In this document: positions 21,378 through 28,324 of the stretch, piece after piece | Layout of the letters: every line of letters begins with the position of its first letter | How positions within the stretch are numbered: position 1 is the first letter of the stretch | Assembly (NCBI RefSeq): GCF_002843605.1 | Contig: NZ_CP025263.1 | Span: forward strand, 2,261,501-2,325,500 | Source: Pseudomonas sp. S09G 359 | Lineage (GTDB): Bacteria > Pseudomonadota > Gammaproteobacteria > Pseudomonadales > Pseudomonadaceae | Direction: 5' to 3' | DNA: 64,000 nucleotides | The notes under the pieces: generated by a model | What the model saw: only the letters and a program-made list of their open reading frames with translations | The model's database searches: none | Told to the model about the DNA's origin: nothing | Translations under genes and position numbers: made by a program

Positions 21378-22457
21378 TCAGTTGCTTTTGTGCTGTTCCC
21401 GCAGGCGCTCGGCGGCACTGCGCAGCAGCTGCTCGGTAGCGTCCCAGCCCAGGCAGCCATCGGTCACCGATACGCCGTACTTCATCGATGCGCTCAAGGG
21501 CTGGCAACCTTCGAACAGGTGGCTTTCGAGCATCATGCCGATCAGCGAGGTGTCGCCCTGCAGGCGCTGCTCCAGCACATTGTTGAACACCGCCGGTTGG
21601 CGCAGAGGGTCCTTGCCGCTGTTGGCGTGGCTGCAATCGACCATGATGCGCGCCGCCACTTTGGATTTGGCCAGGTCGTGCTTCACCTGCGCCACGTGCT
21701 GCGCATCGTAGTTAGGCCCACGGTGGCCGCCGCGCAGCACCAGGTGCGTGTCGGGGTTGCCTGGGGTCTGGATGATCGCCGGGTGGCCCTGGCTGTCGAC
21801 GCCGAAGTGGCGGTGCGGGTGAGCGGCCGAGCGCATGGCGTCACAGGCAATGGCGACGCCGCCATCGGTGCCGTTCTTGAAGCCCACGGGCATGCCCAGG
21901 CCGCTGGCCATTTCGCGGTGGATCTGTGATTCGGTGGTGCGTGCGCCGATCGCGACCCAACTGAGCAGGTCATCGAAGTAGCCGGCAGCCATGGGTTGCA
22001 GCAGCTCGGTGGCCACGGGCAGGCCCAGGCGCAGCATTTCGCGCATCAGCTCGCGGGACAGGGTGAGGCCGGCGGCCATGTCATCGCTGCCGTCCAGGTG
22101 CGGGTCGTAGGCCAGGCCTTTCCAGCCGATGGTGGTGCGCGGTTTTTCGACGTAGGCGCGGATCACCAGCAGCATCTGGTCGCTGACTTCCAGAGCGAGT
22201 TTCTTGAGGTTGCGCGCGTATTCCATGGCCGATTCGGGGTCATGGATCGAGCACGGCCCGACAATTACCAGTAAGCGTGAGTCTTCGCCATTGAGGATGG
22301 CGCGCACGGCTTGGCGATGGGCGTGGATCTGCTCGTTGAGGAACGGGCTGAGAGGCAACTGGTGCTTGAGCTCAAGGGAGCTGGGCAGGCGCTGAGTCAG
22401 GGCTTCATTGGCGCTGGTCAGGTTCGAAACGGGCAGGGCGGCGGTGGCGGAGTTCAT
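21378..22457 (-). CDS. 3-deoxy-7-phosphoheptulonate (DAHP) synthase, class I AroF/G/H type
   Basis: A 359-residue enzyme that condenses phosphoenolpyruvate and erythrose-4-phosphate, the first step of aromatic amino-acid synthesis. ATG at 22457 has AGGAAG eight bases upstream and matches the family N-terminus; an in-frame ATG at 22523 is less likely. Class I motifs seen are LVIVGPCSIHDPESAMEYA, then IRAYVEKPRTTIGWKGL, WVAIGARTTESQIHRE, GFKNGTDG, DCSHANSGKDP (metal ligands) and ESHLFEG. E. coli AroG is 350 residues. Control probably comes from the leader region upstream (22505-22930), which carries runs of aromatic codons and a terminator. Which isozyme this is cannot be settled by eye. Confidence 0.93.
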   Translation of the reverse strand: MNSATAALPVSNLTSANEALTQRLPSSLELKHQLPLSPFLNEQIHAHRQAVRAILNGEDSRLLVIVGPCSIHDPESAMEYARNLKKLALEVSDQMLLVIRAYVEKPRTTIGWKGLAYDPHLDGSDDMAAGLTLSRELMREMLRLGLPVATELLQPMAAGYFDDLLSWVAIGARTTESQIHREMASGLGMPVGFKNGTDGGVAIACDAMRSAAHPHRHFGVDSQGHPAIIQTPGNPDTHLVLRGGHRGPNYDAQHVAQVKHDLAKSKVAARIMVDCSHANSGKDPLRQPAVFNNVLEQRLQGDTSLIGMMLESHLFEGCQPLSASMKYGVSVTDGCLGWDATEQLLRSAAERLREQHKSN

Positions 22458-22504
22458 ATTCAAGGCTTCCTGGGCAAGCAGCGGGCTGTTCCCGCGTGCT
22501 TGGC

Positions 22505-22657
22505 CTACTGGGGTGTTCGACAATTGGCCGTACTGGCTACGTGTGTTGGCTTGCCACCAAGAGGTGACCGATCGGAGGCGGCAGGCTGTCCCGAACGGAG
22601 CTTGCTAAATCGCCAGGCGGTGGAAGTGTCGTAGCGGTAATAGGTGGCGTAGTTCAT
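22505..22657 (-). CDS. Small Tyr-rich ORF between attenuator and DAHP synthase
   Basis: A 50-codon ORF with AAAGGA about eight bases before ATG 22657, ending 47 bases before the synthase start. Its N-terminus MNYATYYRYDTSTAWRF holds four Tyr in the first nine residues plus Trp15 and Phe17; the remainder is ordinary and Ser/Pro/Gly-rich. It lies beyond the terminator hairpin, so it is made only when transcription reads through. It could be a second leader peptide whose ribosome occupancy affects synthase translation, or a small protein. No homologue is known to me. Confidence 0.5.
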   Translation of the reverse strand: MNYATYYRYDTSTAWRFSKLRSGQPAASDRSPLGGKPTHVASTANCRTPQ

Positions 22658-22715
22658 GGTGTGATTCCTTTAAATGTTCGATGTGAAGCAAAATGTTTAA
22701 GGGCTGAAAAAACAA

Positions 22716-22745
22716 AACCCCCGGTCGGGGAGCCGACCGGGGGTT
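22716..22745 (-). terminator. Intrinsic terminator (attenuator) before the DAHP synthase
   Basis: On the minus strand AACCCCCGGTCGG and CCGACCGGGGGTT form a perfect 13-base stem with a CTCC loop, followed by TTTTGTTTTTTC. It lies 50 bases after the stop of the aromatic-rich leader ORF and about 260 bases before the synthase start, in the same direction: the classical layout of a ribosome-mediated attenuator. Confidence 0.85.
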
Positions 22746-22795
22746 AGATTTCTCTGGTAGGCGACCCCTTGAGTAGTGGGCGCCGATTTCAGGTA

Positions 22796-22930
22796 TCAGG
22801 CGCGCCAGTGGCTAAACCAATACCCAAAATAAAAGCTGACAGGTGCGCTCGAACCGTTCACGCGGGTAGCCGACACCGAGCGCTGGGCGCTGGCAGCAGG
22901 GCAAACCTGAGTGTGGGTGAGTTGCAACAT
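22796..22930 (-). CDS. Aromatic leader peptide of the DAHP synthase attenuator
   Basis: A 44-codon ORF with GGAG eight bases before ATG 22930. The C-terminal end reads SFYFGYWFSHWRA: three Phe, two Tyr and two Trp among ten residues, placed about 50 bases before the intrinsic terminator. Ribosome stalling at such codons when aromatic aminoacyl-tRNAs are scarce would favour antitermination, as known for phe and trp leaders. A run mixing all three aromatic amino acids would let one leader report the whole end-product pool. Seen directly: ORF, codons, terminator. Inferred: the mechanism. Confidence 0.75.
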   Translation of the reverse strand: MLQLTHTQVCPAASAQRSVSATRVNGSSAPVSFYFGYWFSHWRA

Positions 22931-23073
22931 GGTGTGTCTCCAAATGATGGGAGGAGCTTACTCGACGCACGTGGGAGTATTCAATCAGAAATTTCTATTA
23001 AACCGGGGGGCTTACGGCTATGGGGTGCCTGCCGATATGCTGATTGCACTCTGATGATTGCTTGGACGCGACC

Positions 23074-24978: not shown

Positions 24979-25129
24979 CCTGTTGCCCAGCAAATTCAGC
25001 CGCCTACCGCTCGGCAGGCGCGTACTGCGCGTTCAAACTCTATATATATGACGCTTGCAGCTAGGTCTGCGCCTTGGTTTTTTGCTAAGGTGTTCAGCAA
25101 CCTATAAGACCATATCGCGAGGTGTCTGC

Positions 25130-25771
25130 TTGATTAGGGTGCTAGTAGTCGATGACCATGATCTCGTTCGTACAGGCATTACACGAATGCTGGCTGACAT
25201 CGATGGCCTGCAAGTAGTCGGCCAGGCCGAATCGGGGGAAGAGTCCCTGATCAAGGCCCGGGAGTTGAAACCCGATGTGGTCTTGATGGACGTCAAGATG
25301 CCCGGGATCGGTGGGCTGGGCGCCACGACCAAACTGCTGCGCAGCCATCCGGACATCAAAGTCGTGGTGGTCACCGTGTGCGAGGAAGATCCGTTTCCCA
25401 CCCGCCTCTTGCAGGCAGGCGCTGCCGGCTACCTGACCAAGGGCGCAGGCTTGGCGGAAATGGTGCAAGCCATTCGCCTGGTGTTTGCCGGCCAGCGTTA
25501 TATCAGCCCGCAAATTGCCCAGCAGTTGGCGATCAAATCCTTCCAGCCTGTCAGTGACTCGCCGTTTGATGCGCTGTCGGAGCGGGAAATCCAGATTGCC
25601 TTGATGATCGTTGGCTGCCAGAAGGTGCAGACGATCTCCGACAAGCTGTGCCTGTCGCCCAAGACCGTTAACACCTACCGTTATCGCATTTTCGAGAAGC
25701 TCGCCATCAGCAGTGATGTTGAATTGACCCTGCTCGCGGTGCGCCACGGCATGGTGGACGCCAGCGCCTGA
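25130..25771 (+). CDS. gacA: Response regulator GacA
   Basis: A 213-residue NarL-family regulator. The TTG start at 25130 (GAGGTG six bases upstream) gives the exact GacA length and N-terminus ([20 protein letters not shown]). The receiver has Asp54 in [10 protein letters not shown]; the C-terminus is a LuxR helix-turn-helix ([20 protein letters not shown], then [14 protein letters not shown]). With the GacS kinase it switches on small RNAs of the Rsm system and so controls secondary metabolism, biocontrol traits and motility in fluorescent pseudomonads. The conserved neighbour uvrC begins just after its stop. Confidence 0.96.
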
Positions 25772-25772
25772 C

Positions 25773-27596
25773 ATGACCACGCCGTTTGATCCCAGTGCCT
25801 TTCTCTCGACCTGCAGCGGCCGCCCCGGCGTGTACCGCATGTTCGACAGCGAGGCACGCCTGCTGTACGTGGGCAAAGCCAAGAACCTGAAAAACCGCCT
25901 GGCGAGCTACTTTCGCAAGAGCGGCCTGGCGCCGAAGACCGCCGCACTGGTGGCGCGTATCGCCCAGGTCGAAACCACCATCACCGCCAATGAAACCGAG
26001 GCGCTGCTGCTTGAGCAGACGCTGATCAAGGAATGGCGGCCGCCCTACAACATCCTGCTGCGCGACGATAAATCCTACCCGTACGTATTTTTATCCGACG
26101 GCCAGTTCCCGCGGCTGAGCATTCACCGGGGCGCGAAGAAGCAGAAGGGCAAGTATTTCGGGCCCTATCCCAGCGCCGGTGCGATTCGCGAAAGCCTTAG
26201 CCTGCTGCAAAAAACCTTTTTTGTGCGCCAGTGCGAAGACAGCTTCTACAAGAACCGCACACGGCCGTGCCTGCAATACCAGATCAAGCGTTGCAAGGCG
26301 CCTTGCGTGGGGTTGGTGGAGCCGGCGGAGTACGCGGAGGATGTGCGCCATTCGGTGATGTTCCTCGAAGGTCGCAGCAATGCCCTCACCGATGAACTCT
26401 CGGGCGCCATGGAGCAGGCCGCCAGTACCCTGGATTTCGAGCGGGCTGCCGAGTTACGTGACCAGATCTCCTTGCTGCGCCGCGTCCAGGACCAGCAAAG
26501 CATGGAAGGCGGCACCGGTGACGTTGATGTGATCGCGGCCTTCGTCAACCCGGGCGGCGCCTGTGTGCACTTGATCAGCGTGCGTGGCGGGCGAGTGCTG
26601 GGCAGCAAGAATTTCTTCCCGCAGACCGGTATCGACGAAGAAGTGGCCGAAGTCATGGCGGCTTTTCTGGGCCAGTACTACGTCAGCAGCCCCGAACGCG
26701 ACTTGCCGTCCGAGCTGATCGTCAACGTGGTGCATGAAGACTTCCCCACCTTGATCGAGGCCATTCACGAACTGCGCGGCCGCGAGCTGGATATCAGCCA
26801 CCGCGTACGCGGCACTCGCGCGCGCTGGCAGCAATTGGCCGTGACCAATGCCGAGCAGGCCTTGGGCGCACGCCTGGCGAATCGACAGCACGTAGCCGCG
26901 CGTTTCGATGCCCTGGCTGAAGTCCTCAACCTGGATGAACCGCCGCAGCGGCTGGAGTGCTACGACATCAGCCACTCCAGCGGCGAGGCCACCGTGGCCT
27001 CCTGCGTGGTGTTCGGGCCGGAAGGGCCGATCAAGTCCGATTACCGGCGCTACAACATCGAAGGGGTCACTGCCGGCGATGACTACGCCGCGATGCACCA
27101 GGCGCTTACGCGACGCTTCAGCAAGCTGAAGGACGGGGAGGGCAAGCTGCCCGATATCCTCCTGGTGGACGGCGGCAAGGGGCAGCTGTCCATGGCCCGT
27201 GACGTGCTCAACGAACTCGCGGTGCCCGACCTGATCCTGCTCGGCGTGGCCAAGGGCGCCACGCGCAAGGCCGGTTTCGAGACGTTGTACTTGAATGATG
27301 CGGCCCATGAGTTCACTTTGAAGGGCGATTCGCCCGCGCTGCACCTGATTCAACAGATCCGTGACGAAGCCCACCGTTTCGCCATTACCGGCCACCGCGC
27401 GCGGCGGGGTAAAACCCGGCGAACCTCAACCCTGGAAGGGGTGGCGGGCGTTGGTCCGACGCGCAGGCGTGACCTGCTTAAACATTTTGGTGGCTTGCAG
27501 GAGCTATCCCGTGCCAGCATTGACGAAATAGCCAAAGCACCCGGTATCAGTAAAAAGCTCGCTGAGTTGATTTATGCGAATCTGCATAGCGAATAG
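25773..27596 (+). CDS. uvrC: UvrABC system protein C (excinuclease)
   Basis: A 607-residue nucleotide-excision-repair nuclease. It has an N-terminal GIY-YIG domain ([20 protein letters not shown]), a central UVR motif ([17 protein letters not shown]), the RNase-H-like C-terminal nuclease ([30 protein letters not shown]) and tandem helix-hairpin-helix motifs at the end ([29 protein letters not shown]). It makes both incisions around bulky lesions after UvrB loading. It starts two bases after the gacA stop, the arrangement conserved in gamma-proteobacteria. Confidence 0.97.
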
Positions 27597-27628
27597 AATG
27601 CCTTTCCACCTCGTAGCCAGTTGTGCCG

Positions 27629-28189
27629 ATGAATATCCCTAATCTGATCACCGTTCTACGCGTCCTGCTTATCCCGATTTTTATTTTGTTGTTCTATTTG
27701 CCCTACGAATGGAGCTACCTGGCCTCCAGTTCGGTGTTCGCCTTCGCGGCCGCCACCGACTGGCTCGACGGCTACCTGGCCCGCCGCCTGGAGCAGAGCA
27801 CGCCCTTCGGCGCGTTCCTGGACCCGGTGGCCGACAAACTCATGGTGGCGGTCGCCCTGGTCCTGCTGGTACAGGAACACGGCAACCTGTGGCTGACCCT
27901 GCCGGCTGCGGTGATCATCGGCCGTGAGATCGTCGTCTCGGCCCTGCGCGAATGGATGGCCGAAATCGGCGCCCGCGCCCACGTGGCCGTCTCCAACATG
28001 GGCAAATGGAAAACCGCCGCGCAAATGCTCGCGCTGGTCATCCTGCTGGCCAACCCATCGGACTTCTCCTTCTGGGTCCTGCTGGGCTACGCCTTGCTGC
28101 TCATCGCCGCGGGCCTGACCCTGTGGTCCATGCTCCAGTATCTACGCGCCGCCTGGCCGCATCTGCGCACCACCGTTGAAAAGAAATAA
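27629..28189 (+). CDS. pgsA: CDP-diacylglycerol-glycerol-3-phosphate 3-phosphatidyltransferase
   Basis: A 186-residue membrane enzyme that makes phosphatidylglycerol phosphate. ATG 27629 gives the conserved start [16 protein letters not shown]; a GTG two codons earlier is in frame. The CDP-alcohol phosphatidyltransferase motif is intact ([20 protein letters not shown], then LDPVADKL). Four to five membrane helices. It is third in the gacA-uvrC-pgsA block and is followed by the tRNA-Gly gene with its own promoter. Confidence 0.96.
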
Positions 28190-28208
28190 ACTTTTTTGAA
28201 TCAAGGGG

Positions 28209-28236
28209 TTGACGGGTGCTGGGGATTCTATAGAAT
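28209..28236 (+). promoter_or_regulatory. Sigma-70 promoter of tRNA-Gly
   Basis: TTGACG (28209-28214) and TAGAAT (28231-28236), 16 bases apart, lie 12 bases before the tRNA. A G/C-rich stretch follows the -10, in keeping with a growth-regulated stable-RNA promoter. Confidence 0.7.
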
Positions 28237-28248
28237 GCGCATCACCAA

Positions 28249-28324
<76 letters not shown>

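What the first reader, a model, noticed from the sequence alone, without database searches (positions are those of the whole stretch)
22716..22930. Aromatic leader peptide plus intrinsic terminator ahead of a DAHP synthase: a combined Phe/Tyr/Trp attenuator
Seen: a 44-codon ORF with a good ribosome site whose C-terminus SFYFGYWFSHW packs Phe, Tyr and Trp codons together; 50 bases later a perfect 13-base GC stem with a T-run; then the synthase gene. Known: phe and trp leaders work by ribosome stalling at control codons. Most leaders read one amino acid. A run with all three aromatics before the common first enzyme would integrate the whole end-product pool. A GGGGT stretch between the ORF stop and the terminator could pair with the ACCCC of the stem as an antiterminator.
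Basis: partly seen in the sequence, partly recalled or inferred. Interest (0 to 1): 0.75.

Follow-up and report, generated by a model that had tools for sequence, protein, structure and literature searches.

The report
Aromatic leader attenuator before DAHP synthase
A short decoy reading frame rich in phenylalanine, tyrosine and tryptophan codons sits before the gene for the first enzyme on the route to these three amino acids and very probably raises that gene's expression when they run short; the same RNA is catalogued as a small RNA of unknown role, and a second conserved decoy frame lies right behind it.

Summary
LP1's end plus terminator match Rfam RF00627 "P15 Pseudomonas sRNA" (113 bits, cut-off 70).

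The aromatic run is in 79 of 79 named loci read (best 80 protein matches, one truncated). All 25 P15-less Pseudomonadaceae genomes checked lack this synthase and keep a ~50% paralog.

Two helices compete downstream of LP1's core. In 197 distinct leaders, modelled stalling switches them in 184 at the core Tyr, 160 at Trp, 106 at Phe, and 0 at the stop codon. In the window itself Tyr and Trp switch, Phe partly, the earlier F-Y-F codons not. This works like the E. coli his leader (recalled). Antiterminator against terminator is weakly supported; no starvation response was measured.

Missed: a second leader ORF, LP2 (22657-22505), with core UGG-CGA-UUU; the rare CGA is used in 202 of 203 distinct leaders. 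Its mechanism is unresolved.

In ten paper searches (listings and passages) nothing linked P15 to DAHP synthase.

The parts
22796..22930 (-). LP1, leader peptide ORF 1 (44 codons, MLQLTHTQVCPAASAQRSVSATRVNGSSAPVSFYFGYWFSHWRA)
   Evidence: aromatic run in 79 of 79 named loci read, 77 with YWF; 44 database relatives, unnamed or hypothetical as far as names are shown
22938..22941 (-). GGAG, ribosome-binding site of LP1
   Evidence: sequence
22814..22834 (-). Aromatic run TTT TAT TTT GGG TAT TGG TTT (F Y F G Y W F)
   Evidence: Among 211 distinct leaders chosen by YWF: TAT 204, final TTT 209; in the window stalling at TAT and TGG, partly at the last TTT, switches the RNA
22817..22825 (-). Segment A (GGGTATTGG), can pair with the end of B when no ribosome covers it
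   Evidence: 95.5% of cells paired, no covariation
22792..22807 (-). Segment B (end of LP1 and stop region)
   Evidence: B:C kept across clades and covarying at one outer pair
22775..22785 (-). Segment C (CGGCGCCCAC), pairs with B or with D
22760..22768 (-). Segment D (GGGGTCGCC), pairs with C or, weakly, with E
22716..22745 (-). Intrinsic terminator: 5' arm E 22745-22733, loop, 3' arm F 22728-22716; T-rich tail 22715-22706
   Evidence: conserved in the alignment of 50 leaders
22718..22838 (-). Match to Rfam RF00627 (P15, Pseudomonas sRNA)
   Evidence: 113.1 bits, gathering score 70
22505..22657 (-). LP2, second leader ORF (50 codons, MNYATYYRYDTSTAWRFSKLRSGQPAASDRSPLGGKPTHVASTANCRTPQ)
   Evidence: WRF[S/T] in frame in 75 of 79 named loci; 78 database relatives, unnamed, hypothetical or uncharacterised as far as names are shown
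22666..22671 (-). AAAGGA, ribosome-binding site of LP2
   Evidence: sequence
22606..22615 (-). LP2 core TGG CGA TTT A
   Evidence: Of 203 distinct leaders chosen by TGGCGNTTYA: CGA 202, TTT 203; five LP2s with other cores, read by eye, all keep CGA
22550..22603 (-). Block of the long LP2 type, same length from Pseudomonas to Halomonas; possible pseudoknot or switch
   Evidence: 34 distinct sequences that passed a TCGG and GGYGGC filter, 54 columns without gaps; no covariation
22476..22501 (-). Hairpin between LP2 stop and the ribosome-binding site of the synthase
   Evidence: fold; similar inverted repeats seen by eye in relatives; not tested for covariation
21378..22457 (-). aroF-like class I DAHP synthase, the presumed regulated gene (AGGA at 22471-22468)

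Best explanation
LP1 with its terminator is a ribosome-mediated transcription attenuator of the DAHP synthase gene, read at Tyr, Trp and Phe codons. Shown by comparison or modelling: (1) LP1 ends in a run of aromatic codons shortly before its stop; (2) the RNA after it can form a chain of alternative helices, A:B, C:D, E:F (terminator) or B:C, D:E; (3) with a ribosome modelled on the core of the run, A is covered and B:C is favoured, which frees D; with a ribosome at the stop codon, B is covered, C:D forms and E is left for the terminator. Inferred: without a ribosome A:B, C:D and E:F form; freed D pairs with E long enough to let RNA polymerase through; so shortage of charged Tyr-, Trp- or Phe-tRNA raises synthase expression, and in plenty a short terminated RNA (P15) is made. 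LP2 is a second leader ORF that is present only on read-through transcripts; most likely it tunes translation of the synthase.
For: Leader and gene go together: P15 in 136 of 149 genus genomes and in 68 of 80 chosen family genomes; the 13 and the 12 without it have only the paralog at 49-53% identity; in each of the 241 loci held for this synthase, fetched by P15 or by protein, the synthase is there. The aromatic run is in 79 of 79 named loci read (77 YWF; L108 and L109 WYGYF). Codons are the rarer synonyms: final TTT 209/211 and TAT 204/211 distinct leaders against 4.6% TTT and 18.4% TAT in the 79 synthase genes. B:C and C:D, both using C, are kept across clades: none of 20,000 permutations of 20 hand-chosen representatives is as good as the native pairs, for either helix. 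B:C covaries at an outer pair (UA 25, AU 11, GC 5, UG 1, unpaired 8 of 50; score reached by 0 of 500 shuffles; same on 41 sequences). Position scan over 197 distinct leaders: B:C exceeds C:D in 184 at the core Tyr, 160 at Trp, 106 at Phe, 4 one codon later and 0 at the stop; in the window 10.3, 9.5 and 5.5 expected pairs at Tyr, Trp and Phe, at most 1.2 at the other codons scanned.
Against: In the window the first three aromatic codons (F Y F) do not switch (B:C 0.7-1.0, C:D 7.1-7.3), and in its clade (53 leaders) the counts are only 46 Tyr, 33 Trp, 15 Phe. Over all 197, B:C also exceeds C:D in 91 one codon before the run and in about 50 further upstream. The last step is weak: D:E pairs differ little between stall at Tyr (5.8) and stop (4.9), and about 6 pairs face a 13-pair terminator. 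In the covariation count two of five measures are no better than shuffles (pairs with double change 297/500, pair types 278/500), and the tool warns that related sequences can beat shuffles without structure. C:D and A:B are nearly invariant in the alignment, so untested at pair level. C was chosen by folding C:D, which favours C:D in the swap test. Fixed footprint and equilibrium folding are assumed. TTT is less rare in five window genes (34 of 88 Phe codons). No promoter by the strict scan. No expression data.
Confidence: 0.86

Rival explanations
1. P15 is a trans-acting small RNA that merely lies upstream of the synthase, or the terminated leader has an additional trans role.
For: Rfam files it as an sRNA gene. 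Leaders can act in trans: leader peptide peTrpL of Sinorhizobium meliloti (PMC7298713, abstract in search listing).
Against: It is the end of a conserved leader ORF plus a terminator, and the synthase follows in every P15 locus that I fetched. P15 was one of eight putative sRNAs put in overexpression strains in Stutzerimonas, with no significant change in nitrite accumulation (PMC13086519, passages); one phenotype only, and the passages do not say which candidates were in fact overexpressed. I made no search for targets.
Confidence: 0.1
2. The attenuator responds mainly to Tyr and Trp, or to one of them; the Phe codons matter little.
For: Switching is strongest at the core Tyr (184/197) and Trp (160/197), weaker at Phe (106/197; 15/53 in the window's clade); in the window the first two Phe codons do not switch.
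Against: The final TTT is as fixed as the Tyr and Trp codons (209/211); over all leaders the codons before the core also switch in 126-159 of 197.
Confidence: 0.3
3. P15 is a riboswitch, as suggested from shared gene order with a TPP riboswitch in Listeria.
For: One passage of PMC2527527.
Against: The conserved core is in frame in an ORF that stops just behind it, and the gene behind is a DAHP synthase.
Confidence: 0.02
4. LP2 is not a functional leader ORF; its conserved core is a nucleic-acid element with another role (for example a protein or RNase site).
For: In the window's clade, changes in LP2 outside the core show little or no third-position bias (161/279/337 before, 388/462/436 after it, by codon position), so the peptide is not kept as a protein; the core is fixed at nucleotide level.
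Against: WRF[S/T] is in frame in 75 of 79 named loci; the LP2 stop lies -4 to 50 nt before the synthase ATG in the 203 distinct leaders (my filter allowed about -30 to 130).
Confidence: 0.25

Closest known systems
E. coli/Salmonella his operon leader, six-segment attenuator (logic recalled; Rfam RF00514)
   Same: A:B, C:D, E:F terminate, B:C and D:E let through; control codons overlap segment A.
   Different: Tyr, Trp and Phe codons instead of His; not a family member by score (20 bits, cut-off 49).
trp and pheA leader-peptide attenuators (recalled)
   Same: Short ORF with codons for the pathway's product, terminator, then the biosynthetic gene.
   Different: Those read one amino acid; here codons for three end products stand in one run before the common first enzyme.
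Rfam RF00627, P15
   Same: Same RNA, 113 bits.
   Different: Filed as an sRNA gene; here it is the end of a leader ORF plus the terminator before a DAHP synthase.
Two short ORFs in the Salmonella mgtCBR leader (PMC3641672, abstract in search listing)
   Same: Two short ORFs in one mRNA leader.
   Different: Other gene and other signals; here both ORFs carry aromatic codons.

Membership tests
Rfam RF00627 (P15) | Covariance-model score at or above 70 bits | tested here: met
   113.1 bits, model positions 1-119
Amino-acid leader-peptide transcription attenuator (class) | Short ORF with clustered codons for end products of the regulated gene's pathway | tested here: met
   F Y F G Y W F before a DAHP synthase; aromatic run in 79 of 79 named loci read
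Amino-acid leader-peptide transcription attenuator (class) | Intrinsic terminator between leader ORF and gene | tested here: met
   22745-22716 plus T-run; conserved (in one search my pattern missed three terminators that the printed sequence shows)
Amino-acid leader-peptide transcription attenuator (class) | Mutually exclusive helices whose choice depends on ribosome position | tested here: met
   B:C against C:D, computational only
Amino-acid leader-peptide transcription attenuator (class) | Antiterminator that captures the terminator's 5' arm | tested here: inconclusive
   D:E is weak and depends little on ribosome position
Amino-acid leader-peptide transcription attenuator (class) | Read-through rises on starvation for the cognate amino acid | not testable with these tools
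   needs experiment
Rfam His_leader RF00514 | Score at or above 49 bits | tested here: not met
   20 bits, E 0.87
Trans-acting sRNA | Regulates distant mRNAs by base pairing | not tested
   no target search; one published overexpression study without effect on nitrite (PMC13086519, passages)
Trans-acting sRNA | Stands apart from a conserved ORF and from one fixed neighbour gene | tested here: not met
   overlaps LP1; the synthase follows in every P15 locus fetched

The most novel reading that the evidence does not exclude
A two-stage attenuator on one mRNA: LP1 gates transcription by reading Tyr, Trp and Phe, and on transcripts that pass, LP2 gates translation of the same gene. Its near-invariant UGG-CGA-UUU would be a stall site paced by the rare Arg codon CGA. 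In the short-LP2 group (P. aeruginosa/Stutzerimonas-like) a ribosome on the core uncovers the synthase start in the model (mean accessibility 0.415 to 0.53; 48-49 of 89 leaders rise by more than 0.1, 2-3 fall), though the rise is broad (codons -5 to +7), not special to the core, and absent in the window's own group.
Probability: 0.35. Interest if true: 0.78.

Novelty: new variant of a known kind. Interest (0 to 1): 0.6.

Why it matters
It gives a likely mechanism to a catalogued 'sRNA' without known function, and shows how Pseudomonas and its relatives could set entry into the shikimate pathway by the supply of its three amino-acid products at once. P15 is still being tested as a trans-acting sRNA (PMC13086519, passages), so the correction is practical. 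The second leader, with the rare Arg codon CGA in 202 of 203 distinct leaders, makes a clean question: why must that codon be CGA?

Tried and rejected
Pattern search of 185 class genomes for an LP2 motif found nothing, but it missed the window's own genome as well (spacer set too short), so it says nothing. A search of 198 family genomes for TGGCGATTTA alone was unspecific (up to 27 hits in a genome) and was not used.

Two crossing stems in the long-type LP2 block (possible H-type pseudoknot): 93.4% of cells paired, but covariation no better than shuffles (468 of 500 as high). Kept as a lead only.

LP2 core pairing with the synthase start: long exact complements in some loci (CGCCATGCA in L063, AAATCGCCA in L062, CGCCAGTCAT in L083). 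Native against permuted pairs: all 2 of 10,000, Pseudomonadaceae 3 of 10,000, 24 representatives 175 of 20,000, aeruginosa/stutzeri group 389 of 10,000, putida group 1219 of 10,000, window's group 6387 of 10,000, Halomonadaceae 5739 of 10,000. Of seven control windows, one (150 nt downstream) gave 4 of 10,000 and one (30 nt) 154 of 10,000, so relatedness may explain the signal. It cannot explain why CGA is fixed everywhere. By mean energy the start region is no better than the coding windows behind it.

A conserved complement of the LP2 core elsewhere in the leader was looked for by eye only, and none was seen. The duplex scan against the terminator 5' arm gave no single conserved partner. A first folding test stopped with an error after printing its means (stall 0.42-0.47, stop 0.38) and was replaced. 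A first locus count recognised the synthase in 166 of 257 loci and was replaced.

Not checked: the 107 order genomes without a P15 match, as a set. At least one (G220) has the synthase with LP1 and LP2 (L150), so outside the family the P15 model misses leaders.

Full report
What is there. All features lie on the minus strand: LP1 ORF 22930-22796 with GGAG at 22941-22938; its end reads S F Y F G Y W F S H W R A stop; 50 nt later comes a 13-pair terminator stem, 22745-22716, with a T-rich tail; then a second ORF, LP2, 22657-22505, behind AAAGGA; then a class I DAHP synthase from ATG 22457 (PF00793, TIGR00034). LP1's last codons plus the terminator match Rfam RF00627, 'Pseudomonas sRNA P15', with 113.1 bits against a cut-off of 70. 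In the permissive Rfam scan the only amino-acid leader family listed is His_leader, 20 bits, under its cut-off of 49.

Distribution. P15 is in 136 of 149 genomes of the genus, in 8 of 115 of the order, 5 of them over the cut-off, and in 68 of 80 family genomes that I chose. The 13 genus and the 12 family genomes without P15 were searched with the synthase: all have only a paralog of 49-53% identity, which the window's genome carries too (52%, C1:1914474), besides a class II enzyme (C1:1929431). The two genomes with a P15 below the cut-off that I followed have orthologues of 64% (G146) and 59% (G479). Outside the family the P15 model misses leaders: G220 (L150) has the synthase with LP1 and LP2 but no P15 match. 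Upstream of 30 paralog genes (L124-L138, L154-L168; L139 is cut off) 27 had no ORF with an aromatic cluster by my criterion (4 of 10 residues); three had one (L164 with KIGYWF, L165, L166) that I did not follow up, and L134 has a motif match without an ORF.

Conservation of LP1. In 77 of the other 79, Tyr-Trp-Phe is in frame upstream; the other two (L108, L109) have WYGYF. Of all 241 loci that I held for this synthase (218 distinct leaders), 234 have YWF, four have variants (L012 YWY, L214 YWWF, L108, L109) and three distant ones have WWFGYGFYFS (L151-L153). Many of the 241 were fetched by a P15 match, so only the 79 are free of that bias. The codons are nearly fixed on the rarer synonyms: final TTT 209 of 211, TAT 204 of 211 distinct leaders, whereas the 79 synthase genes use TTT for 4.6% of Phe and TAT for 18.4% of Tyr. 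In five genes of the window TTT is commoner, 34 of 88. The first part of LP1 shows no coding constraint in the window's clade (209/313/270 changes by codon position), as expected of a cis-acting leader.

Switch. From folds of the RNA in front of a modelled ribosome I defined six segments: A GGGTATTGG (the GYW codons), B the end of LP1 with its stop, C, D, and the terminator arms E and F. B:C and C:D compete for C. Among 20 hand-chosen clade representatives none of 20,000 permutations of partners had a mean energy as good as the native pairs, for B:C or for C:D; with 44 and 41 distinct pairs none of 5,000 (L106 was left out because its C:D hairpin was misplaced; C was chosen by folding C:D, which helps C:D). 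On an alignment of 50 sequences B:C covaries mainly at one outer pair (UA 25, AU 11, GC 5, UG 1, unpaired 8): 20 cells with changes on both sides against 7.2 +/- 1.9 in shuffles, score reached by 0 of 500; two other measures (pairs with double change, pair types) are not above shuffles, and relatedness is not controlled by them (same picture on 41 sequences). C:D and A:B hardly vary there and are untested at pair level.

Position scan. For 197 distinct LP1 leaders I placed a ribosome (15 nt covered beyond the first P-site base) on each codon and computed pairing of the free RNA up to the terminator's 5' arm. Counting from the core Tyr as 0, B:C exceeds C:D in 49-51 of 197 at codons -8 to -6, 91 at -5, then 159, 146, 126, 126, 184, 160 and 106 at -4 to +2 (F Y F G Y W F in the window), 4 at +3 and 0 at the stop. 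In the window the expected B:C pairs are 10.3, 9.5 and 5.5 at the core Tyr, Trp and Phe and at most 1.2 at all other codons scanned, including the first F Y F. In the window's clade (53 leaders) the counts at Tyr, Trp and Phe are 46, 33 and 15. The drop after the run follows from covering B; the informative part is that the core lies just where A is covered and B is free. D pairing with E, the last step, differs little between states (5.8 pairs at Tyr, 4.9 at the stop) and is the weakest link.

What it works like. The chain is the logic that I recall for the E. coli his leader. By score it is a member of RF00627 and not of His_leader. The sRNA label is not supported as its main role; a trans role of the released RNA is not excluded and was not tested. 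PMC2527527 (one passage) suggested a riboswitch by gene order. PMC13086519 (passages) put P15 among eight putative sRNAs in overexpression strains, without significant effect on nitrite. PMC8297930 (passages) mapped 3' ends in P. aeruginosa; its main text has no 'P15' and no 'leader peptide', and its supplements could not be read. Passages of PMC2965389, PMC4263517, PMC7857532, PMC7822408 and PMC12300143 do not mention such a leader. My ten paper searches listed no paper that ties P15 or a leader peptide to DAHP synthase in Pseudomonas; most listings were capped and subscription papers are mostly not in that library.

LP2. In 75 of 79 named loci an in-frame W-R-F-[S/T] follows the terminator; the four without it are Salinicola. 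Among 203 distinct leaders picked by TGGCGNTTYA, CGA is used in 202 and TTT in 203 (W and the final A are fixed by that search), against 3.5% CGA among Arg codons of the synthase genes. Of the loci without that motif, five have other cores (TGG CGA TTT T.. three times, TGG CGA TAC, GGG CGA TTT), read by eye, and all keep CGA. The LP2 stop lies -4 to 50 nt before the synthase ATG, shortest in Halomonas-like loci, where coupling of translation is easy to imagine. Tyr codons before the core are mostly TAC. In the model a ribosome on the core raises accessibility of the synthase start in the short-LP2 group (89 leaders: 0.415 to 0.53; 48-49 rise by more than 0.1, 2-3 fall), less in a putida-like group (37: 0.526 to 0.59; 9-10 rise), and not in the group that includes the window (59) nor in Halomonas-like leaders (17); the groups are by my rule of thumb on LP2 length, identity and gap. 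The pairing behind it did not pass its controls. So LP2 is conserved and its mechanism open.

Names. Database relatives of LP1 (44) and LP2 (78) are unnamed, hypothetical or uncharacterised as far as the names are shown. Organism-group names such as Halomonadaceae or putida group are my recall from the record titles.

Noticed in passing
22505-22657 (-): Second leader ORF LP2 with TGG CGA TTT core between the terminator and the synthase; 75 of 79 named loci.
   Followed up: yes
22550-22603 (-): 54-nt block in LP2 of constant length in 34 distinct filtered sequences from Pseudomonas to Halomonas (TCGG...GCCRCCTCCG...GGTGGC); two crossing stems possible, no covariation.
   Followed up: partly
22513-22519 (-): CGAACAC near the end of LP2 (again codon CGA, then ACA) recurs in many Pseudomonadaceae leaders seen by eye; reason unknown.
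   Followed up: no
L151-L153, upstream of 54-55% identical synthases: A distant family has an LP1-like leader with a denser run, FFWWFGYGFYFS, and no LP2 motif.
   Followed up: partly
L164, about 520 nt upstream of a paralog DAHP synthase: An ORF with KIGYWF, the only paralog locus of 30 with a GYWF-like ORF; may be chance.
   Followed up: no
G000:C1:1914474 and C1:1929431: The genome's two other DAHP synthases (class I paralog, class II) lie about 14 kb apart.
   Followed up: no
25055-28321 (+): A response-regulator-like ORF, a long ORF 25773-27596, an ORF 27623-28189 and a tRNA in a row; looks like gacA-uvrC-pgsA-tRNA, names recalled and not searched.
   Followed up: no
22716-22745 (+): The terminator stem was also flagged on the plus strand, with tail AGATTTCTCT.
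   Followed up: no
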